Positions 21,804 through 33,227 of a DNA stretch of 64,000 nucleotides are shown piece after piece. Source of the stretch: Planctomycetota bacterium (GTDB lineage Bacteria > Planctomycetota > UBA1135 > GCA-002686595); contig JAJDEU010000013.1 of assembly GCA_029259635.1 (NCBI GenBank), positions 248,001 through 312,000 on the forward strand. Direction: 5' to 3'. Under the pieces are notes generated by a model, which made no database searches, was not told where the DNA came from, and saw only the letters and a program-made list of their open reading frames with translations. Numbering within the stretch: position 1 is the first letter of the stretch; every line of letters starts with the position of its first letter. Both the position numbers and the translations under genes were made by a program.

Positions 21804-22673
21804 ATGAGCGCCACAACAACGGAAACGCACGAGCTCGCGACGCGCGCTCGGAGGCTGCAACTCGCTGCGATCTATCACGCGGGGTCCGGGCATCCGGGCG
21901 GATCGCTCTCGTGCACCGACCTCTTGGTTTGGTTGTGGCAAAACGCGTATCGCGAGGCGGTGCCGAACGACGCGGCGGGCGGCGAACAGTTCATTCTCTC
22001 GAAGGGACACGCGGCGCCAGCGCTCTACGCGGTCGGCGCGGAGTTCGGGTTGATGACGCGCGACGAGGCGCTGACTCTGCGCAAGCTCGGCAGCCCGTGT
22101 CAGGGACATCCGCACGTCGTCGACCTGCCGTGGACCGGCGCGAGCACCGGCTCACTCGGTCAGGGCTTTTCGGTTGGAGTCGGCAAAGCGCTGGCCATGA
22201 AGCACCGCAAGCTCGCCGGTTTCGTCACCGTCATCCTCGGCGACGGTGAACTGCAAGAGGGCGAATGCTGGGAAGCGGCAATGAGCGCAGCGCACCACAA
22301 GCTCGGCAATCTGATCGCGGTGGTCGACTACAACAAGCTGCAGAGCGATGACTGGAATAGTGCGATCTGCGGGCTCGAACCGCTGACCGACAAGTGGCGC
22401 TCTTTCGGTTGGCGCGTACTCGAGGTCGACGGCCACGACTATGACGAGCTCGATCGCGTGTTCGCCGAGGCTCGCGACGGTTGCTCGCCGGCACCGACCT
22501 GCATTATCGCGCACACGCACAAGGGACAAGGCGTGAGCTTCATGGAAGACTCGCCGCTGTGGCACGGGAGTGTCTGCTTGACGGAGGAACAACTGCGCGA
22601 CTCCTTGCGCGACCTCGGAACCCCAGACGACGAAATCAACAGCTGGCTCGAAGGGAGCGCCCCCCGTGGTTGA
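21804..22673 (+). CDS. Split transketolase, N-terminal (TPP-binding) subunit, copy 1
   Basis: The 289-aa subunit carries the pyrophosphate-binding half of transketolase: GSGHPGGSLSCTDLLVWLW near the N-terminus, ILSKGHAAPALYA, STGSLGQGFSVGVGKA and the thiamine-diphosphate motif GDGELQEG (about 146) with Asn/Lys in VVDYNKLQSDD. It pairs with the C-terminal subunit encoded next (8-nt overlap), together making a full enzyme that transfers two-carbon ketol units. Split transketolases occur in central metabolism of some bacteria and in biosynthesis of unusual sugars. A second pair at 38932-40820 sits in a glycan-like operon, so a specialised role for at least one pair is likely. Confidence 0.92.
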   Translation: MSATTTETHELATRARRLQLAAIYHAGSGHPGGSLSCTDLLVWLWQNAYREAVPNDAAGGEQFILSKGHAAPALYAVGAEFGLMTRDEALTLRKLGSPCQGHPHVVDLPWTGASTGSLGQGFSVGVGKALAMKHRKLAGFVTVILGDGELQEGECWEAAMSAAHHKLGNLIAVVDYNKLQSDDWNSAICGLEPLTDKWRSFGWRVLEVDGHDYDELDRVFAEARDGCSPAPTCIIAHTHKGQGVSFMEDSPLWHGSVCLTEEQLRDSLRDLGTPDDEINSWLEGSAPRG

Positions 22674-23637
22674 AGCGACACAGACCGAAGCTCCGACACT
22701 GATCGGAAAGAGCGGCGACTCGATGCGCGAGGCCTTCGGGCACGCGCTGGTCGAACTCGCGGGCGAGCGCGAGGACCTGGTCGTGCTCGACGCCGACATC
22801 GCAGGCGGAACCGGCGTTCACAACTTTCGCGACGCGTGCCCCGAGCGCTTCTTCCAGTTCGGAATCGCCGAACAGAACATGATGGCGGTCGCCGGCGGAA
22901 TGGCGAGCATGGGACTCCGGCCCGTCGTCACCACCTTCGCGGTGTTCTGCTTGCGCGCCGTCGAACAGGCGCGACTCTCGATCGCCTACTCGAAGCGCAA
23001 GGTTCTGATTGCCGCCAGCCATCCCGGCCTCGACGTCGGACCGGACGGCGGCTCGGCGCAGTGTTTTGAAGACATGGCGGCCTACCGCGCGATTCCCGGC
23101 ATGACGGTGCTCTCCCCCGCCGACCCGGTCGAGATGCGACTCGCAACGCGCGCGGCGATCGCACACGACGGTCCGGTCTACATGCGCACCGGTCGCAGCC
23201 CGGTACGGCGGCTGTTCGACGAGACTCACCAATTCGCGATCGGTCGCGGAACGCAGCTCCGCGACGGGACCGACGTCACGCTGGTAGCCTGCGGCGTCGA
23301 GGTGGCGCGCGCGCTCGACGCTGCGGAACTCTTGGCGGCGGACGGAGTCTCCGCGCGCGTCGTCAATATGCCGAGCATCGAGCCCGTCGATCACGAGCTG
23401 CTCGCCGCTTGTGCCCGCGAGACCCGCGCCTTTGTCACCGCCGAAGATCACAGCGTTCGCGGCGGCCTCGGCAGCGCCGTGGCCGAGTCTCTCGCGACAC
23501 ACCTTCCACGTCCGATCCAGTTCGTGGGAATGCGCGATGAGTTCGGAACATCGGCCGAGCCGGACGAGCTCGCCGCGCACTACGGAATTGACGCACACGG
23601 AATCGCAGCCGCAGCGCGGCTCGCGCTCACTCGCTAA
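22666..23637 (+). CDS. Split transketolase, C-terminal subunit, copy 1
   Basis: The 323-aa subunit holds the pyrimidine-binding and C-terminal transketolase domains. It has the catalytic Glu in FQFGIAEQNMMAVAGGMAS, followed by RPVVTTFAVFCLRAVEQ, the SHPGLDVGPDGGSAQ loop, MTVLSPADPVEMRLATR and VYMRTGRSPVRRL. The C-terminal domain has the conserved block TAEDHSVRGGLGSAVAE. It overlaps the N-terminal subunit gene by 8 nt, ensuring equal synthesis. It is clearly paralogous to the gene at 39837. Substrate specificity cannot be read from the sequence. Confidence 0.92.
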   Translation: MVEATQTEAPTLIGKSGDSMREAFGHALVELAGEREDLVVLDADIAGGTGVHNFRDACPERFFQFGIAEQNMMAVAGGMASMGLRPVVTTFAVFCLRAVEQARLSIAYSKRKVLIAASHPGLDVGPDGGSAQCFEDMAAYRAIPGMTVLSPADPVEMRLATRAAIAHDGPVYMRTGRSPVRRLFDETHQFAIGRGTQLRDGTDVTLVACGVEVARALDAAELLAADGVSARVVNMPSIEPVDHELLAACARETRAFVTAEDHSVRGGLGSAVAESLATHLPRPIQFVGMRDEFGTSAEPDELAAHYGIDAHGIAAAARLALTR

Positions 23638-23693: not shown

Positions 23694-24110
23694 ATGTCGC
23701 TCAAGAAAAAAATCCTCCTCTCCCTGCTCGCGCTCTTCGTCCTGATTCAGCTCAAGACGATCGACCGCAGCAATCCGCCGGTAACCGCAGAACTCAATGC
23801 AAGTCCCGAAGTGATGGAGGTCCTACGGCGCTCTTGTTACGACTGCCACTCGAACGAGAGTGTGTGGCCGTGGTACTCCTACGTGGCGCCGGTCTCCTGG
23901 CTGGTCGAGCACGATGTCGAGGAGGCGCGCGAGCACATGAATTTTTCCGAATGGGAGAGCTGGGACAAAGAGAAGCAAGACCACAAGCGCGAGGAGTGCT
24001 GGGAAGAAGTCGAGGAGGGCGAGATGCCGCTGTGGTTCTACGTCCCGCTTCACTCCGAGGCGGAGCTCTCGGACGACGACCTCAAGGTCTTGAAGAACTG
24101 GGCGCTCTAG
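23694..24110 (+). CDS. Haem-binding domain protein (Haem_bd), membrane-anchored cytochrome-like
   Basis: The 138-aa protein has one N-terminal hydrophobic segment (ILLSLLALFVLIQL) that can serve as an anchor or signal. A single c-type haem motif CYDCH follows at about residue 48 (VLRRSCYDCHSNES), then the family block WPWYSYVAPVSWLVEHDVEE, NFSEW and MPLWFYVPLHSEAELSDDDL. This is the pattern of the small haem-binding domain family found in Bacteroidetes and Planctomycetota. It is probably an exported electron carrier. It stands alone between the transketolase genes and the AAA_14 gene. Confidence 0.88.
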   Translation: MSLKKKILLSLLALFVLIQLKTIDRSNPPVTAELNASPEVMEVLRRSCYDCHSNESVWPWYSYVAPVSWLVEHDVEEAREHMNFSEWESWDKEKQDHKREECWEEVEEGEMPLWFYVPLHSEAELSDDDLKVLKNWAL

Positions 24111-25889: not shown

Positions 25890-26771
25890 CTAGCCTTTCA
25901 GCCGCGAGAGGTCGAGGCGACCGCCCTCTACCGGAGGGCACCAGAAGTAGCTCCCGGTTAAAGGCCGAGTAAAACAGAACAGCTCGTCGCGGATGCCATC
26001 GTCGAGCCCGACCATTCGGTTGAGCAGAGCCTCGAACGCGTCGAAGCTCTTCCCGAAGGCGACGAAGACCAGTCCTTCTCGCGCGGCATCCGCCCAGGGC
26101 ATCGAGCGTCGCAGAACAAAGGCCTCCGGCTCGAAGTCCTCCTGTGCCGTGCGCTTGACGTGCGCGGAAGCCGGCGCGGACTCCAGCTCTTCGTTGTCCG
26201 AGATGCGCCGCCCGATCACGTGGTCGCGCTGGTCATTATCGAGCGCCGAAAAAGTATCGAGGTCGTGCACCCACTGCTGGACGGCGACAAAACTGCCGCC
26301 GTCGAGCCCCGCACCCGCGCCGTGAACGTAAGCCGCCGCGTTCGCCGCATCGCCCTCGGGGTTCTCCGTTCCATCTTCATAGCCCGAGAGATCGAGGCCC
26401 GATCCGTATCGGAACGCGTCGATGACTTCGTCCAAGAGGAAGGCCTCTTCCACGGCGGCACAGACGGCACGAGTCGTGTGCACGAGCTCCCCGCGATCAT
26501 CGCCGCGCAACCAACACCACAGCGCGACCGGCGTCGAGGGGATGTCGATCCCGGCGCCGACCAGCGCGGGAAAGTTCCGCATGCCCTCGATGTCCACGTC
26601 GAGCTGGGCGAGTAGAGAGGGCCCCAATCCGATCACGATGGAGTCATCGACCGCTAGGTCCGCGAGTGCTTCCAGTGCCTCGAGCGGCGCGCTCTCGGGA
26701 AGCAGACTGAAGGAGAGATAGCGCGCGTCCTCGGGGACCGGCGCGGAGATTCCAGGTTGAGAGTGAGTCAT
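25890..26771 (-). CDS. DyP-type haem peroxidase
   Basis: The 293-aa protein has the DyP signature G-x2-DG in SGYEDGTENPEG (Asp/Arg distal chemistry), the proximal haem-ligand His in SAHVKRTAQ and the conserved Arg in FVLRRSMPW. The C-terminal FVAFGKSFDAFEALLNRMVG and SYFWCPP blocks are typical. It oxidises substrates with H2O2. No signal peptide or Tat motif is seen, so it is cytoplasmic or encapsulin-borne, but no encapsulin gene or obvious C-terminal targeting tail was found. The ATG at 26771 is chosen because the upstream in-frame extension (to 26927) lacks family similarity. It converges with the AAA_14 gene. Confidence 0.92.
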   Translation of the reverse strand: MTHSQPGISAPVPEDARYLSFSLLPESAPLEALEALADLAVDDSIVIGLGPSLLAQLDVDIEGMRNFPALVGAGIDIPSTPVALWCWLRGDDRGELVHTTRAVCAAVEEAFLLDEVIDAFRYGSGLDLSGYEDGTENPEGDAANAAAYVHGAGAGLDGGSFVAVQQWVHDLDTFSALDNDQRDHVIGRRISDNEELESAPASAHVKRTAQEDFEPEAFVLRRSMPWADAAREGLVFVAFGKSFDAFEALLNRMVGLDDGIRDELFCFTRPLTGSYFWCPPVEGGRLDLSRLKG

Positions 26772-27086
26772 CACAGGCACATTTTTCGAAGGGAGTCGGG
26801 CTCTGGTTCTTGGGCTCGCCCAGCATAGAAAAAGCGTGGTATTATTCCGCGGCTCAGTTCCGGCCACCCGGCGGAACCGATCGAGCCGCGCGCTCTCGCC
26901 CCGCCTCACCGCTATGTTCAACCTCACTGTCTACTGCCGCCGCACGCTGAACACGATTCCCCCGGAATCGCGAGCCACCGATCGGATTTCGAAAAGTAAA
27001 CCCGCCGCTGCAGACCCGAATGGACTCGACGCGCGGGTTTTCTCGTGCACCGACGCTCGCGCGAACTCGGACCAGGGAGCGTCGAG
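26772..27086. other. Intergenic region between DyP and the Sec ABC-transporter operon
   Basis: This 315-bp gap separates divergent genes and must hold both promoters. No coding signal is seen. A weak dyad AACCCGC (26999-27005) / GCGGGTT (27033-27039) followed by TTTC lies ~47 nt before the transporter start and could be an attenuator or leader structure; it does not match a riboswitch class I can recognise by eye. Confidence 0.4.
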
Positions 27087-28151
27087 ATGAAGCGCAAGGT
27101 CATGATCGGAGCGCTCGTCTGGGCGCTGCTCCTCACGGTCGCTCACATCCAGCTGAACGTGGGCTGGAAAGCGCTGTCCGATGAGGCGCAGGTCCGTCTG
27201 GGACAGAAGCGACGCGAGCTCACGGTCGGCTTCCTACCCGTGACATGACACCTCACCTGCCCGGTCACCAGTTGGGTGACCGACCACTCCGATGAGGGCA
27301 CGCTCTTTCGCTCACGCAAGTTCACCGACTGGCCGACGGTCAAAGAAGCGCTGATCTCCAAGGACATTGGCGGCGTCTTCATTCTCGCTCCGATGGCAAT
27401 GCAGCTCGTCGCGGACGGCATTCCGATCAAGGTCGTCTACCTCGGTCACCGCGACGGAACCGCGATCATTGTCGGCAAGGACTCCGGCATCAACGACTTC
27501 AAAGGCCTAGCCGGCAAGACGATCGCGATCCCCAGTCGCTATGCCAACCAGAACATCTTGATGCACAAGTCGATGAAGGAGTGGGGCATGCCCTACGACT
27601 CGATCGACTTGCGCGAGCTTCCGCCGCCGGAACACCCGACCGCGTTGCAGGCAGGGACGATTGACGGCTACATCGTCGGTGAGCCTTTTGCCGCGAAGGC
27701 GGAGGTCGACGGGTTCGGCAAGGTGCTCTATCACACCAAGGATATCTGGCCCGAGTTCATCTCCTGCGTCCTGGTTGTGCAGGAAGATCTCATCGAAGGA
27801 CGCCGCGAACTGATTCAAGAACTGGTCGACGGCATCGCCAAGTCGGGCAAGTGGCTCGACGAAGACATCGAGCATCGCATGGATGCCGCGGAGGTCTCGG
27901 CGAAGAACTATTACTTCCAGGATCCCGAGCTCTTGAAGTACGTGCTCTCCAAACCGGTCGACCGCGTGAAGTACACGAACCTCGCGCCGCTGAAGCCGGA
28001 CTTCGACGAGATCATGGAGCTGGCCCACGAGATCGGCGTGCTGTCGCGGCGAGTCGGGTTCGACGAGTACGCCGATCCATCCTTTGTGCGCGACCTGGAA
28101 GAGCTCGATTGGAACATGGACCGATTGCCCAGCGCGGAGAGCAAGCCGTGA
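27087..28151 (+). CDS. Predicted selenocysteine-containing ABC-transporter substrate-binding protein (NMT1/NrtA-like)
   Basis: The frame runs from ATG 27087 (GGGAG upstream) to 28151 with a single in-frame TGA at 27246-27248, codon 54. Upstream: an N-terminal signal or anchor segment (MIGALVWALLLTVAHIQLNV) and the start of the NitT/TauT-type binding domain, ELTVGFLPVT. Then TGA, HLTCPVTSWVTD and a full NMT1-like domain: GVFILAPMAMQLVADGIPIK, ALQAGTIDGYIVGEPFAAKA, ELIQELVDGIAKSGKWLDED. In relatives such as NrtA/SsuA the residue after the GFxPxT-type strand lines the ligand pocket, so U54-x3-C58 would sit there. The protein has 354 aa with Sec. A near-perfect SECIS-like hairpin follows the TGA. 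The permease (GTGA overlap) and ATPase genes follow, so the transporter is complete. Two separate genes or a pseudogene are unlikely because codon structure is continuous across the TGA. Confidence 0.88.
27262..27282 (+). promoter_or_regulatory. Predicted bacterial SECIS element in the ABC binding-protein gene
   Basis: A perfect 8-bp hairpin, arms CGGTCACC (27262-27269) and GGTGACCG (27275-27282) with loop AGTTG, starts 13 nt after the in-frame TGA, so its loop lies 21 nt after it. Position, stem length and a G in the first two loop bases meet the bacterial SECIS consensus. It overlaps the codons for PVTSWVTD. Confidence 0.82.
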
Positions 28152-28972
28152 CTACTCCGCTCATCGTCATCGCCGTTGCCGCGCTGTGCTTCCTGATCGG
28201 TACGCGCGGGAGTGCACGCGTTCAAAACATCCTGTTGCCGCTCTCGGTCACCGCGATCTTGGTCGGTCTGTGGGACCTGGCCTGCGTACTAACCGATACT
28301 CAAGTCTTCCCGACGCCCGCCAAGACCTGGGCGGCCTTCGGCGAGATTGTCGAGAGCGAGCGCCTCTGGGGCGACACCGTCGCGAGCCTGTTCCGCGTCA
28401 CCTGGGGCTTCCTGCTCGCCGCCGCGGTCGGCATCCCGCTCGGACTCGTCGTCGGTTGGTCCACGCGCACCTTCCGCGCGCTCAACCCAATCATCCAAGG
28501 TCTGCGCCCGATCTCCCCCATCGCGTGGATTCCCATCGCGATCCTGTGGTTCGGCATCGGCGATGGCGCCGGCATCTTTCTGATCTTTCTGTCCTCCTTC
28601 TTTCCGATCACCGTCGGAACGATGGCGGCTGTGCGCAACATCTCGCTCGTGCATCAACGCTCGGCGATGAACTTTCAAATGACGGGCCTGGAGCTCTTTC
28701 GCCGCGTCGTCTTCCCGGCCTCCCTGCCGCAGATCATTACGAGCTTGCGAATTTCTCTCGGCGTGGCCTGGCTCGTGATCGTCGCCGCCGAGATGGTCGG
28801 CATGGATTCGGGACTCGGCTATCTCATCAACGACGCGCGCAACGCGGGCAGCCGCTATGACCTCGTCGTCGCCACCATGATCATTATTGGACTGATCGGA
28901 ATCGTGCTCGATCTCTTGATTCGCCAGCTCGAAAAGTTTGACGAAGTGCGCTGGGGGTACGTGAACCGATGA
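28148..28972 (+). CDS. ABC transporter permease (NitT/TauT type)
   Basis: The 274-aa inner-membrane protein has about six hydrophobic segments and the BPD_transp_1 fold. The EAA-type cytoplasmic loop is in MTGLELFRRVVFPASLPQII, and the region GLRPISPIAWIPIAILWFGI is typical of SsuC/TauC/NrtB permeases. It starts with GTG overlapping the stop of the Sec-containing binding protein gene and its stop overlaps the ATPase start (ATGA), so all three are one translationally coupled operon. Confidence 0.93.
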   Translation: MTTPLIVIAVAALCFLIGTRGSARVQNILLPLSVTAILVGLWDLACVLTDTQVFPTPAKTWAAFGEIVESERLWGDTVASLFRVTWGFLLAAAVGIPLGLVVGWSTRTFRALNPIIQGLRPISPIAWIPIAILWFGIGDGAGIFLIFLSSFFPITVGTMAAVRNISLVHQRSAMNFQMTGLELFRRVVFPASLPQIITSLRISLGVAWLVIVAAEMVGMDSGLGYLINDARNAGSRYDLVVATMIIIGLIGIVLDLLIRQLEKFDEVRWGYVNR

Positions 28973-29730
28973 GTGAGCGAACTCCAAAGGTCATCTTCGA
29001 GAACGTCTCGAAGAGCTTCGATGTCAAAGGTGACAAGCTTGAGGTGCTCGAGAGCATCGACCTCACCGTCGGCGAGGGCGAGCTGGTCTGTTTGCTCGGT
29101 CCGTCGGGCTGTGGCAAGTCGACTCTGCTCAACATCGCGGGCGGTTTCGAACAGCCGAGTTCCGGCACGATCAAGATCGACGGCGAACTGATCACCGCAC
29201 CCGATCCGCGCCGCGTCTTCGTCTTCCAAGAGTACGGCATCTTTCCGTGGGCTTCGGTCTGGGACAACGTCGTCTTGGGCCTGCGCCATCTCTCGAAGGA
29301 TAAGCAGTACGAGATCGCCTCGGAGATCATCGACCTGGTCGGACTGTCCGGCTTCGAAAAGACCTATCCCATGGCGCTCTCGGGTGGCATGAAGCAACGC
29401 GTCGAAGTGGCGCGCGCGCTCGCCGTCTCGCCCGACGTGCTCTACATGGACGAACCTTTCGGCGCGCTCGATTCGCTCACGCGACTGACCATGCGCTCGG
29501 AACTGATTCGCATCTGGAAAGACCGCAAGCCGACGATTCTCTTCGTCACCCATGACGTCGATGAAGCGATCCAACTCGCCGAACGCGTGGTCGTCTTCAC
29601 AGGTCGTCCCGGCAGCATCGCCGGTGTCATCCCGATCGACCTCGAGCACCCGCGCGATTTGGGCAGCGCGCAGTACGGCGTGATCAAGAACAAGCTCTAT
29701 GAGCTACTCGGCGTCAGCCACTTGATCTAG
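28969..29730 (+). CDS. ABC transporter ATPase (NitT/TauT type)
   Basis: The 253-aa protein contains Walker A (LGPSGCGKSTLLN), the Q-loop (VFQEYGIFPW), the signature LSGGMKQRVEVARAL, Walker B (VLYMDEPFGALDSLTR) and the switch His (FVTHDVDEAIQLAERV). It is most like SsuB/TauB/NrtD ATPases. It powers the transporter with the Sec-containing binding protein. Its 3' end overlaps the convergent CPBP protease gene by 27 nt. Confidence 0.94.
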   Translation: MSERTPKVIFENVSKSFDVKGDKLEVLESIDLTVGEGELVCLLGPSGCGKSTLLNIAGGFEQPSSGTIKIDGELITAPDPRRVFVFQEYGIFPWASVWDNVVLGLRHLSKDKQYEIASEIIDLVGLSGFEKTYPMALSGGMKQRVEVARALAVSPDVLYMDEPFGALDSLTRLTMRSELIRIWKDRKPTILFVTHDVDEAIQLAERVVVFTGRPGSIAGVIPIDLEHPRDLGSAQYGVIKNKLYELLGVSHLI

Positions 29731-30954: not shown

Positions 30955-31752
30955 ATGACGACTGCATCCACGGAAGGGTCCGCAGGCGAGCTGCGTCACG
31001 CCATCGAGTTCACGCGAACCACCGTGAGATTCGGCGCGACGACCGCTGTGAACGGAATCGAGCTCTCCGTTCCCGCGGGACGCACAACGGCACTAATTGG
31101 TCCCAGCGGTTGCGGAAAGACGACACTGCTTCGGTTGGCCGTCGGGCTTCAGCGCGCCGACTTGGGCGACGTTCGCGTGCTCGGACGGAGGATCGAGAGC
31201 AACAGTTTGGCGGAACTGCGCCACTCCATCGGCTACGTCGTCCAAGAGGGCGGGCTCTTCCCCCACCTCTCCTGCGAGAAGAACGTCTCGATCGTCGCCG
31301 AGTTCTTGGGTTGGGATTCCGAGCGCATTCGCGCGCGCATGTCGGAGTTGTGCGCTCTGGTCCAGCTCCCCGAAGACTTAATCGCACGCGCGCCTTCCAA
31401 ACTGTCGGGAGGCCAACGTCAACGCGTCGGCTTGATGCGCGCGCTCTTTCTCGACCCCGAGCTCTTGTTACTCGACGAGCCGCTCGCCGCGCTCGACCCG
31501 ATGGTGCGCGCTGAACTGCAAGACGACCTGAAACAGATCTTCGCGCGACTCGAAAAATCCGTACTGCTCGTCACGCATGATCTCGCGGAAGCGGGCTATC
31601 TCGGTGACGAGCTCGTTCTCATGCGCGCGGGACAAGTCGTACAACGCGGCAGCCTGCGCGAGCTCTTCGAAGAGCCGACCGATCCTTTCGTCACCAGCTT
31701 CGTCTCCGCGCAACGCGGCGCGCGCGACGTTCTTGCGGAGGCTGCCCAGTGA
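30955..31752 (+). CDS. Osmoprotectant (glycine betaine/choline type) ABC transporter ATPase
   Basis: The 265-aa ATPase contains Walker A ([19 protein letters not shown]), the Q-loop ([13 protein letters not shown]), the signature [15 protein letters not shown], Walker B ([13 protein letters not shown]) and the switch His ([17 protein letters not shown]). It has no CBS domains, unlike OpuCA. It overlaps the fused binding-protein/permease gene by 4 nt (GTGA), giving a two-gene transporter. Confidence 0.9.
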
Positions 31753-33227
31753 GAGCGCTCGCACTCCTGCTGTGTCTCGCCGCCTGTGCGCCGGTCTCGC
31801 GCGACTTGCGAGTCGGATCGAAACGCTTTACCGAATCGCGCGTCCTGGGCGAGCTCGGTGTCATCGTCGCGAGAGGCACCGGCGCCACCGTCGCACCGCG
31901 CACCGAGTTCGGCGGAACGATGCTCGCCTGGAATGCGCTGCGAACCGGCGCCATCGACCTCTACCCCGACTACACCGGGACGATCATCAATGAGATCCTC
32001 GCGGGCGAATCGATCGAGAGCGCGGAGGAGCTGACCGAGGCCCTCGCGCAACACGGGATCCGGAGCACGGCGCCGCTCGGATTCAACAACACCTATGCGA
32101 TCGGGTTGCGCGAAGAGCGAGCGCATGAGCTCGGCATCGAACGCGTCTCCGATCTCGCCCAGCATCCCGACTTAAAACTCGGCTTCAGTAACGAGTTCAT
32201 GGATCGCGCCGACGGCTGGCCCGGATTGCGCGAGACCTATGGCCTTCCGCAGAGCGACGTGCGTGGTCTCGATCACGACGTTGCCTACCGCGCGCTTGAG
32301 AGCGGCGCCCTCGACGCGATCGACCTCTATTCGACCGACGCCGAGATCGACTATTACGCGCTGCGCGTTCTCGAGGATGATCGCGCGTATTTTCCGCGCT
32401 ACGACGCCGTGTTCTTGTATCGCGCGGAGCTCGCCACGACCGCGCCGACGCTCGTCCGCGAACTCGATCGGCTCGCGGGAAAGATTTCTGAAGACGCGAT
32501 GGTCGCGATGAACGCGCGCGCCAAGCTCGAGCTTGTCCCCGCAGCCACCGTCGCTTCCGAGTTCGCCGCGAGCCAGCTCGACCTGCACGTCTTGACGACC
32601 GAGCGAACCCTCGCCGAGCGCCTTTGGCTTCGAACGAAAGAGCACCTAACGCTTGTACTGATCTCGCTCTTCGCCGCGATCGTCATCGCGATTCCGCTCG
32701 GAATTCTCGCCGCCCGTCGCGAGCGTCTCGGCCAAGTCGTGCTCGCCATCACAGGTATCCTCCAGACGGTTCCTTCGCTCGCGCTGCTCGTCGTGATGAT
32801 CCCGCTGCTGAAACTCCTCGGCGCACCCTCGACCTACCTGATCGGATCCGCGCCCGCGATTCTCGCGCTCTTCCTCTACGGCTTGCTGCCGATCGTGCGG
32901 AACACTCACCAGGGCCTGAAGGACATCCCCGGCGACCTCCGCGATGCAGCCGAAGCGCTCGGTCTCTCCGCGCGCGCCAAGCTCTGGCGCATCGAACTCC
33001 CGCTCGCCTCGACCTCGATTCTCGCCGGCATCAAGACCTCGGCCGTGATCAACATCGGGACCGCGACACTGGGAGCCCTCATCGGGGCCGGCGGCTACGG
33101 CCAGGCGATCCTGACCGGCATCACCCTCGACGACACTGCGCTGATCCTCGAAGGCGCGCTTCCCGCCGCGCTCCTGGCGCTCATTGTCGAGTACGGAGTC
33201 CGGTCAAAAACCCGCGACTATTCCTGA
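31749..33227 (+). CDS. Fused osmoprotectant-binding lipoprotein and ABC permease
   Basis: The 492-aa protein carries its substrate-binding domain at the N-terminus and its permease at the C-terminus. It begins with a lipobox (LLLCLAACAP), then an OpuAC/OsmX-like domain (LRVGSKRFTESRVLGEL, AIDLYPDYTGTIINEIL, SNEFMDRADGWPGL) to about residue 275. An OpuCB-type permease with five to six hydrophobic segments and the loop DIPGDLRDAAEALGLSARAK follows. In many fused osmoprotectant transporters the permease comes first; here the order is reversed. A lipidated N-terminus followed by a membrane domain needs one extra crossing. The gene follows the ATPase by GTGA overlap; an MscS channel gene is next. 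Confidence 0.88.
   Translation: MRALALLLCLAACAPVSRDLRVGSKRFTESRVLGELGVIVARGTGATVAPRTEFGGTMLAWNALRTGAIDLYPDYTGTIINEILAGESIESAEELTEALAQHGIRSTAPLGFNNTYAIGLREERAHELGIERVSDLAQHPDLKLGFSNEFMDRADGWPGLRETYGLPQSDVRGLDHDVAYRALESGALDAIDLYSTDAEIDYYALRVLEDDRAYFPRYDAVFLYRAELATTAPTLVRELDRLAGKISEDAMVAMNARAKLELVPAATVASEFAASQLDLHVLTTERTLAERLWLRTKEHLTLVLISLFAAIVIAIPLGILAARRERLGQVVLAITGILQTVPSLALLVVMIPLLKLLGAPSTYLIGSAPAILALFLYGLLPIVRNTHQGLKDIPGDLRDAAEALGLSARAKLWRIELPLASTSILAGIKTSAVINIGTATLGALIGAGGYGQAILTGITLDDTALILEGALPAALLALIVEYGVRSKTRDYS

What the first reader, a model, noticed from the sequence alone, without database searches (positions are those of the whole stretch)
27087..28151. ABC-transporter binding protein with selenocysteine at its predicted ligand site (U-x3-C)
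Seen: one frame from 27087 to 28151 with a single TGA at codon 54, flanked by GFLPVT and HLTC, followed by a perfect 8-bp hairpin whose loop is 21 nt downstream. The rest is a complete NMT1/NrtA-like domain, and permease and ATPase genes follow with GTGA/ATGA overlaps. Known: in NitT/TauT-type binding proteins the N-terminal strand carrying a GFxPxT-like motif leads into the ligand pocket. Inference: the selenol plus Cys58 may bind a soft metal, a thiol- or selenium-reactive ligand, or do redox chemistry. A Sec residue used in solute recognition by a transporter would be a new role for selenoproteins, which are almost all redox enzymes. From memory, related proteins may carry Cys here; this must be verified.
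Basis: partly seen in the sequence, partly recalled or inferred. Interest (0 to 1): 0.95.

Follow-up and report, generated by a model that had tools for sequence, protein, structure and literature searches.

The report
Selenocysteine in a nutrient importer's receptor
A group of Planctomycetota bacteria appear to build the rare amino acid selenocysteine into the protein that catches cargo for a membrane importer, perhaps to grip a cargo that binds selenium or sulfur strongly; the cargo is not yet known.

Summary
Frame 27087-28151 has one TGA (codon 54) and a hairpin within the published bacterial SECIS limits; the genome has selA, selB, tRNA-Sec and selD. Of 67 distinct relatives 53 have TGA here, 11 Cys, 3 Asp; the tree needs at least 8 Sec/Cys changes. 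Stem plus AGTTG loop is intact in 51 of 53 TGA genes and 0 of 11 Cys genes, and one stem pair of silent codon positions is C-G or G-C in 52 of 53. This is a selenoprotein family: the probably membrane-anchored receptor of a NitT/TauT-type importer, with permease and ATPase behind it in 30 of 31 neighbourhoods. Cys58 accompanies Sec/Cys54 in 64 of 64 and is absent from the 3 Asp forms. Inferred, not shown: Sec54 and Cys58, with His121 and Cys227, capture a soft metal(loid) or thiol-reactive ligand. The general idea has precedent: a 2026 review lists predicted Sec-containing receptors SaoX, SaoB and BtuF. This family falls outside SaoX by score and motif.

The parts
27087..28151 (+). Sec-containing substrate-binding protein gene (354 aa when TGA54 is read as Sec)
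27087..27161 (+). N-terminal hydrophobic helix (residues 2-25), likely uncleaved membrane anchor; no Cys in residues 1-53 of the window protein, so no lipobox
   Evidence: Model secondary structure; anchor role inferred
27246..27248 (+). UGA codon for Sec54
   Evidence: 53 of 67 relatives TGA, 11 Cys, 3 Asp
27258..27260 (+). Cys58, partner of Sec54 (U-x3-C)
   Evidence: 64 of 64 with Sec/Cys54, 0 of 3 with Asp54
27262..27282 (+). SECIS hairpin: stem 27262-27269 / 27275-27282, loop AGTTG 27270-27274
   Evidence: rules from PMC13188914 section 5
27447..27452 (+). His121-Arg122 in the first hinge crossing (LGHRDG), 67 of 67
   Evidence: hinge position inferred
27765..27767 (+). Cys227 at the start of a strand (227-232), present in the 65 of 67 rows that are not gapped there
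28148..28972 (+). ABC permease (BPD_transp_1)
28969..29730 (+). ABC ATPase

Best explanation
The gene encodes a probably membrane-anchored periplasmic substrate-binding selenoprotein of a three-gene NitT/TauT-type ABC importer. SelB reads UGA54 as Sec using the hairpin directly downstream. Sec54 sits between strand 1 and helix 1, at the edge of the ligand cleft in this fold. Together with Cys58 one helical turn on, and the conserved His55, His121 and Cys227, it captures a soft ligand (a metal or metalloid complex, or a thiol-reactive sulfur or selenium compound). The loaded receptor then docks on the permease and the ligand is taken up at the cost of ATP. Shown by sequence: the Sec codon and its SECIS, the family, the operon and the predicted fold. 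Inferred: Sec54 in the cleft, its chemistry, the ligand class and the direction of transport.
For: Own genome has selA, selB, tRNA-Sec and selD, itself with an internal TGA. TGA in 53, Cys in 11, Asp in 3 of 67 distinct relatives, with at least 8 Sec/Cys changes on the tree. Six inner pairs plus AGTTG loop intact in 51 of 53 TGA genes and 0 of 11 Cys genes. The pair formed by the third bases of codons 60 and 64 is C-G in 45, G-C in 7 and mismatched in 1 of 53; 6 changes on the tree, and in independent comparisons both sides changed together, 6 of 6 in nearly all of 200 pairings, p 0.03-0.06. Codon 62 is AGT in 52 of 53 TGA genes, though AGT is 38 of 657 other serines in 41 of them. Codons 44-53, before the TGA, show 95 silent to 8 changing single differences against 27:63 possible, over 26 relatives. 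selB found in 25 of 25 TGA genomes tested. Model pLDDT 93, pTM 0.87; best solved match 3un6, E 5e-28, TMt 0.89, title cut off at 'with Zin'. In its alignment His stands at position 54, and His121 and Cys227 are kept. Permease and ATPase follow in 30 of 31 neighbourhoods; receptor and permease are one frame in L061.
Against: The tool gave no coordinates, so distances among Sec54, Cys58, His121 and Cys227 were not measured. No ligand is known. No gene beyond permease and ATPase was found in four or more neighbourhoods, apart from opposite-strand ORFs over the operon, and no riboswitch in the window or the 30 fetched neighbourhoods, so context names no substrate. The hairpin contrast is not complete: 3 of 11 Cys genes (L044, L086, L112) keep the six pairs and 2 of 11 (L026, L049) keep the loop, though none keeps both; among TGA genes L111 has lost the hairpin and L108 one pair. 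selB against non-TGA genomes is only suggestive (25 of 25 vs 16 of 19, p 0.07). 3un6 has Ser at position 55 and His at 122, so His55 is not part of a shared site. Where the zinc sits in 3un6 was not seen.
Confidence: 0.6

Rival explanations
1. Redox switch: Sec54 and Cys58 form a reversible selenenylsulfide that gates an ordinary ligand (sulfonate, taurine, nitrate-like) without contacting it.
For: U-x3-C is always paired, 64 of 64; the i/i+4 spacing would put both on one helical face (for the helix; inferred); related structures are named for taurine, sulfonates, nitrate and bicarbonate.
Against: His121, Arg122 and Cys227 are also fixed, which suggests a specific soft-ligand site; no further gene is shared by four or more neighbourhoods.
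Confidence: 0.25
2. It is a selenium importer feeding selenoprotein synthesis.
For: Sec dependence would tie the receptor to selenium status; [quoted passage not shown]
Against: Cys forms are kept in two genomes where no selB was found, G268 and G270 (G270 is 98% complete); six of six tested genomes without the gene at E 1e-40 have selB.
Confidence: 0.06
3. It is an organometal receptor that works like SaoX of the SAO system without being SaoX.
For: All 51 rows of A1 match NF040735 weakly, best E 3.5e-22; permease and ATPase also score best against SaoP and SaoA in NCBIfam, below cut-off.
Against: 64.9 bits against a cut-off of 300; motif U-x3-C-P, not UxP; no SAO lyase, thioredoxin or other partner among 10 neighbouring genes of the window scanned.
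Confidence: 0.12
4. The TGA is a true stop: pseudogene, sequencing error, or a shorter protein from GTG27276.
For: A start-to-stop ORF listing at 90 aa or more shows only the 291-aa frame 27276-28151.
Against: Same TGA in 53 of 67 relatives and Cys at the codon in 11; hairpin and loop together only with TGA; protein-level selection before the TGA.
Confidence: 0.01
5. It is an enzyme built on the receptor fold, with Sec54 as nucleophile, as in the desulfinase DszB.
For: DszB structures match the model (2de2, E 6.3e-15) and a C27S mutant was crystallised with 2'-hydroxybiphenyl-2-sulfinic acid (titles). That Cys27 lies in the equivalent loop is recalled, not tested.
Against: Permease and ATPase follow in 30 of 31 neighbourhoods and receptor and permease are one frame in L061.
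Confidence: 0.04

Closest known systems
SaoX and SaoB, predicted Sec-containing ABC substrate-binding proteins of the SAO system (Haft and Gwadz 2023, seen only as cited and tabulated in PMC13188914)
   Same: Sec in an ABC substrate-binding protein; weak homology to SaoX
   Different: Far below the SaoX cut-off; motif U-x3-C instead of UxP or CUxxT; no SAO partner among 10 scanned neighbours in the window; relatives seen here are all Planctomycetota, but outside that phylum only looked
3un6, Staphylococcus aureus ABC ligand-binding component (title cut off at 'with Zin')
   Same: Closest solved structure by sequence and fold; keeps His121 and Cys227
   Different: His at the Sec54 position, Ser at 55, Leu at 58; no Sec
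NitT/TauT-type receptors SsuA, TauA, NrtA, CmpA and the receptor-like domains of NrtC and CmpC
   Same: Fold; GF-x-P-x-T strand-1 motif in NrtC and CmpC; operon type
   Different: NrtC and CmpC have Asp or Ala at 54 and no Cys at 58; CmpC has a Cys at 55. The SsuA and TauA alignments did not reach this site. Window protein is below the SsuA_fam and taurine cut-offs
Cobalamin-binding protein BtuF, selenoprotein form (table in PMC13188914)
   Same: A Sec-containing receptor is predicted
   Different: Different domain (cd01144) and motif CxxU

Membership tests
Bacterial selenoproteins | In-frame UGA at a fixed position in homologues, with Cys homologues | tested here: met
   53 TGA, 11 Cys, 3 Asp of 67; at least 8 Sec/Cys changes
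[quoted passage not shown]
   5-nt loop AGUUG, 8 bp, 21 nt, -15.1 kcal/mol (rules); pairs and loop kept in 51 of 53 TGA genes
Bacterial selenoproteins | selA, selB, selC, selD in the genome | tested here: met
Bacterial selenoproteins | Selenium present in the purified protein | not testable with these tools
   Needs 75Se labelling or mass spectrometry
NMT1_2 / NitT-TauT ABC substrate-binding proteins | Domain match and two-lobed binding-protein fold | tested here: met
   PF13379 116 bits vs cut-off 24.7; predicted fold matches 3un6, TauA, SsuA, NrtA
NMT1_2 / NitT-TauT ABC substrate-binding proteins | Co-encoded permease and ATPase | tested here: met
   30 of 31 neighbourhoods, the exception being the distant Asp row L084
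NMT1_2 / NitT-TauT ABC substrate-binding proteins | Binds and delivers a solute | not testable with these tools
   Ligand unknown
SaoX (NF040735) | Score above curated cut-off 300 | tested here: not met
   64.9 bits for the window protein; best of 8 further rows scanned one by one 78.9, an Asp row
SaoX (NF040735) | UxP motif | tested here: not met
   U-H-L-T-C-P in the window; motif from the table in PMC13188914. Whether the two Sec positions align was not tested
SaoX (NF040735) | SAO operon partners | tested here: inconclusive
   None among 10 neighbouring genes of the window (one 35.7-bit SaoP match in the separate importer at 31749-33224); other neighbourhoods were not scanned with SAO models
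SsuA_fam (TIGR01728) | Score above cut-off 163.5 | tested here: not met
   106 bits
DszB-type desulfinases | Nucleophilic Cys in the equivalent loop | tested here: inconclusive
   Sequence alignment covered only residues 185-268

The most novel reading that the evidence does not exclude
Selenocysteine is used here as a ligand-binding residue of a high-affinity importer: Sec54, with Cys58, His121 and Cys227, forms a soft-ligand site that lets Planctomycetota take up a trace metal(loid) or reactive sulfur or selenium nutrient at concentrations a Cys site cannot reach. That would be a non-enzymatic, affinity-setting role for Sec in nutrient uptake.
Probability: 0.4. Interest if true: 0.85.

Novelty: new variant of a known kind. 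Interest (0 to 1): 0.66.

Why it matters
Selenoproteins of known function are mostly redox enzymes (general knowledge; the review says much the same of the rest). A receptor family that has changed between Sec and Cys at least eight times gives a natural test of what Sec adds to solute recognition: native Sec and Cys forms can be purified and compared, including close pairs such as L112 (Cys) beside L107 and L110 (Sec). The gene is also easy to miss, because a start-to-stop ORF listing shows only a 291-aa frame that lacks the anchor, strand 1 and the Sec itself.

Tried and rejected
Pseudogene, sequencing error or general recoding of TGA: rejected, and because 38 of 42 TGA genes extracted end in TGA (3 in TAG, 1 runs off its contig). 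Rfam SECIS_1 in the own genome gave nothing, but its control genomes also gave nothing, so it says nothing. A cmscan of the hairpin region gave only two chance miRNA-like hits. Riboswitch search of the window and all 30 fetched neighbourhoods gave only tRNAs. Conserved-neighbour search in 31 neighbourhoods: six gene clusters in four or more, namely receptor, permease and ATPase frames and opposite-strand ORFs overlapping them, which I take for shadow ORFs by position; some clusters shared by two or three neighbourhoods were not followed up. The gene caller was a crude longest-ORF one, so small genes may be missed. SaoX search in 382 phylum genomes: none at E 1e-40, but its controls rang nowhere either. 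Paper search on 3un6 and its recalled locus tags: five papers listed, none opened, none with a ligand in title or abstract start. PDB sequence search at E up to 10 aligned DszB only over residues 185-268. Passages on pocket residues in PMC5623697 did not settle the strand-1 loop. First extraction of homologues misread strands of several loci and was redone. Taxonomy look-up of Pla163 found no name.

Full report
Observation. The frame 27087-28151 holds one in-frame TGA, codon 54 at 27246-27248, between GFLPVT and HLTC. Twenty-one bases after it lies the loop AGTTG closed by eight perfect pairs, 27262-27282. The hairpin alone folds at -15.1 kcal/mol. The 71-nt region is not unusual in total energy (z -1.03), so I did not rest on energy. 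It meets the published bacterial SECIS limits for loop size, G in the first two loop bases, stem length, distance and energy (PMC13188914 section 5, read). Permease and ATPase start with GTGA and ATGA overlaps. The gene's own stop is TGA, so TGA has not been reassigned.

Sec machinery. The genome holding the window has selA over cut-off, selB over cut-off, a tRNA-Sec over the gathering score, and selD over cut-off with an internal TGA.

Relatives. A scan of GTDB contigs found 9 relatives, all Planctomycetota: 8 with TGA at codon 54 and one, Rhodopirellula solitaria, with TGC. That scan used peptide patterns from this one protein, so it does not show that the family is limited to this phylum. 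A search of 392 genomes of the phylum found 29 with a match at E 1e-40; 49 of 81 genomes of the same family have one; 13 genomes are in both. With the two contigs that were not among these genomes, and after dropping seven loci that were the same contigs twice, 67 distinct genes remain: 53 TGA, 11 Cys (TGC or TGT), 3 Asp (GAC in L053; Asp by alignment in L054 and L055). On a quick maximum-likelihood tree of the 67 proteins (SH-aLRT support only) Sec and Cys need at least 8 changes, and the three Asp rows form one group.

SECIS conservation. The six inner pairs and the AGTTG loop are all intact in 51 of 53 TGA genes and in 0 of 11 Cys genes. Taken apart, the contrast is softer: the six pairs survive in 3 of 11 Cys genes (L044, L086, L112) and the loop in 2 of 11 (L026, L049). 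Among TGA genes L108 loses one pair through a change in codon 64, and L111 has the loop GACTG and broken pairs; I did not resolve how L111 would be decoded. The most telling pair is formed by the third bases of codons 60 and 64, where any base is silent for Val: C-G in 45, G-C in 7, C-C in 1 (L111). The tree needs 6 changes between C-G and G-C, and in independent comparisons both sides changed together, 6 of 6 in nearly all of 200 random pairings (median p 0.031, range 0.031-0.0625). Codon 62 is AGT in 52 of 53 TGA genes, whereas AGT makes up 38 of 657 other serines in 41 of them. In 9 of 11 Cys genes codon 62 is AGC or not serine.

Protein-level evidence before the TGA. Between the window and 26 relatives with Sec at codon 54, counting only codons with one differing base, codons 44-53 show 95 silent and 8 changing differences against 27 and 63 possible ones; codons 1-26 show 139 and 116 against 59 and 175. 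So the stretch before the TGA is translated as part of the same protein. An annotation from GTG27276 (291 aa) would lose the anchor, strand 1 and Sec54.

selB and the TGA form. I gave 44 genomes: 25 with TGA genes, 10 with Cys, 3 with Asp and 6 without a match. selB was found in 25 of 25, 8 of 10, 2 of 3 and 6 of 6. The three without are G268 (Cys), G270 (Cys, 98% complete) and G097 (Asp). TGA genomes against the rest give p 0.07: in the expected direction, but weak.

What the protein is. Pfam NMT1_2 (116 bits, cut-off 24.7), with NMT1 second. AlphaFold2 on the 51-row alignment A1 gives pLDDT 93 and pTM 0.87. Foldseek's best solved match is 3un6 (E 5e-28, TMt 0.89), then TauA, a CmpBCD domain, SsuA and NrtA. 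There is an N-terminal helix of 24 residues and no Cys before Sec54, so I infer a membrane-anchored receptor rather than a lipoprotein. Permease and ATPase follow on the same strand in 30 of 31 neighbourhoods, window included (21 Sec, 8 Cys, 2 Asp); the exception is the distant Asp row L084. In L061 the receptor frame runs straight into a permease-like sequence (660 aa). This argues for an importer subunit and against a free enzyme. No other gene was found in four or more neighbourhoods except opposite-strand ORFs over the operon (crude ORF calling), and no riboswitch in the window or the 30 fetched neighbourhoods.

Where Sec54 lies. In the model strand 44-49 is followed by a short helical turn 53-55, which holds Sec54, and by helix 57-66. 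In two-lobed binding proteins this region borders the cleft (established for the fold; not measured here because the tool gives no coordinates). In the profile alignments shown, Sec54 faces His in 3un6, Asp in NrtC and Ala in CmpC; in the three outgroup rows it faces Asp. Cys58 is present in 64 of 64 Sec or Cys rows and 0 of 3 Asp rows. His55, His121 and Arg122 are present in 67 of 67, and Cys227 in the 65 rows not gapped there. 3un6 keeps His121 and Cys227 but has Ser at 55. Its title, cut off in the listing, ends 'with Zin'; from memory it reads 'with Zinc bound', and where the metal sits I do not know.

Mechanism. The most likely reading is a soft-ligand site: Sec54 and Cys58, which occur together on a background of conserved His121 and Cys227, hold a metal or metalloid complex or a thiol-reactive sulfur or selenium compound, and the receptor delivers it to the permease. 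Shown: Sec coding by comparative evidence, SECIS, family, operon, predicted fold. Inferred: cleft position, ligand class, direction of transport (import, from the receptor-dependent type). The main rival is a Sec54-Cys58 redox switch gating an ordinary ligand. A dedicated selenium importer is unlikely because Cys forms are kept in two genomes in which selB was not found.

Known relatives and novelty. The review PMC13188914 (passages, outline, section 5, and parts 1-2 of 3 of section 7, which hold the whole table) counts 119 prokaryotic selenoprotein families or subfamilies. Among them are the ABC binding proteins SaoX (UxP), SaoB (CUxxT) and BtuF (CxxU), and the permease SaoP. [quoted passage not shown] So Sec in an ABC receptor has precedent by prediction. 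I saw no NMT1-type U-x3-C receptor in that table. Paper searches gave no report of one: one search found no paper, searches listed four and two; the deep-Sep paper lacks the terms I looked for. Haft and Gwadz 2023 and a second paper of that group were not held. The family fails SaoX membership by score (64.9 bits against 300) and motif; partner genes were tested only around the window. It can still work like SaoX. I file it as a new variant of a known kind.

Noticed in passing
L061:1287-3266: Receptor and permease appear as one 660-aa frame joined by a Gly/Ala/Glu-rich linker, still with TGA54.
   Followed up: partly
window 30955-33224: A second ABC importer close by: ATPase, then a protein with an OpuAC glycine-betaine-type binding domain in front of a permease domain.
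   Followed up: no
L111 (G410:C65): TGA at codon 54 but no intact hairpin (loop GACTG); its two nearest rows on the tree, L086 and L113, carry Cys. Perhaps a different SECIS or a decaying one.
   Followed up: partly
L118, G000:C1:124619-125548: selD of the same genome has an internal TGA, so it is probably a selenoprotein itself.
   Followed up: no
G192: Two selB matches over cut-off on different contigs of one genome.
   Followed up: no
window 21804-23637: Transketolase is encoded as two adjacent genes, N-terminal domain and pyrimidine/C-terminal domains.
   Followed up: no
window 23694-24107 (+) and 25893-26927 (-): Haem-binding-domain protein and Dyp-type peroxidase near the operon; not among the clusters shared by four or more neighbourhoods.
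   Followed up: partly
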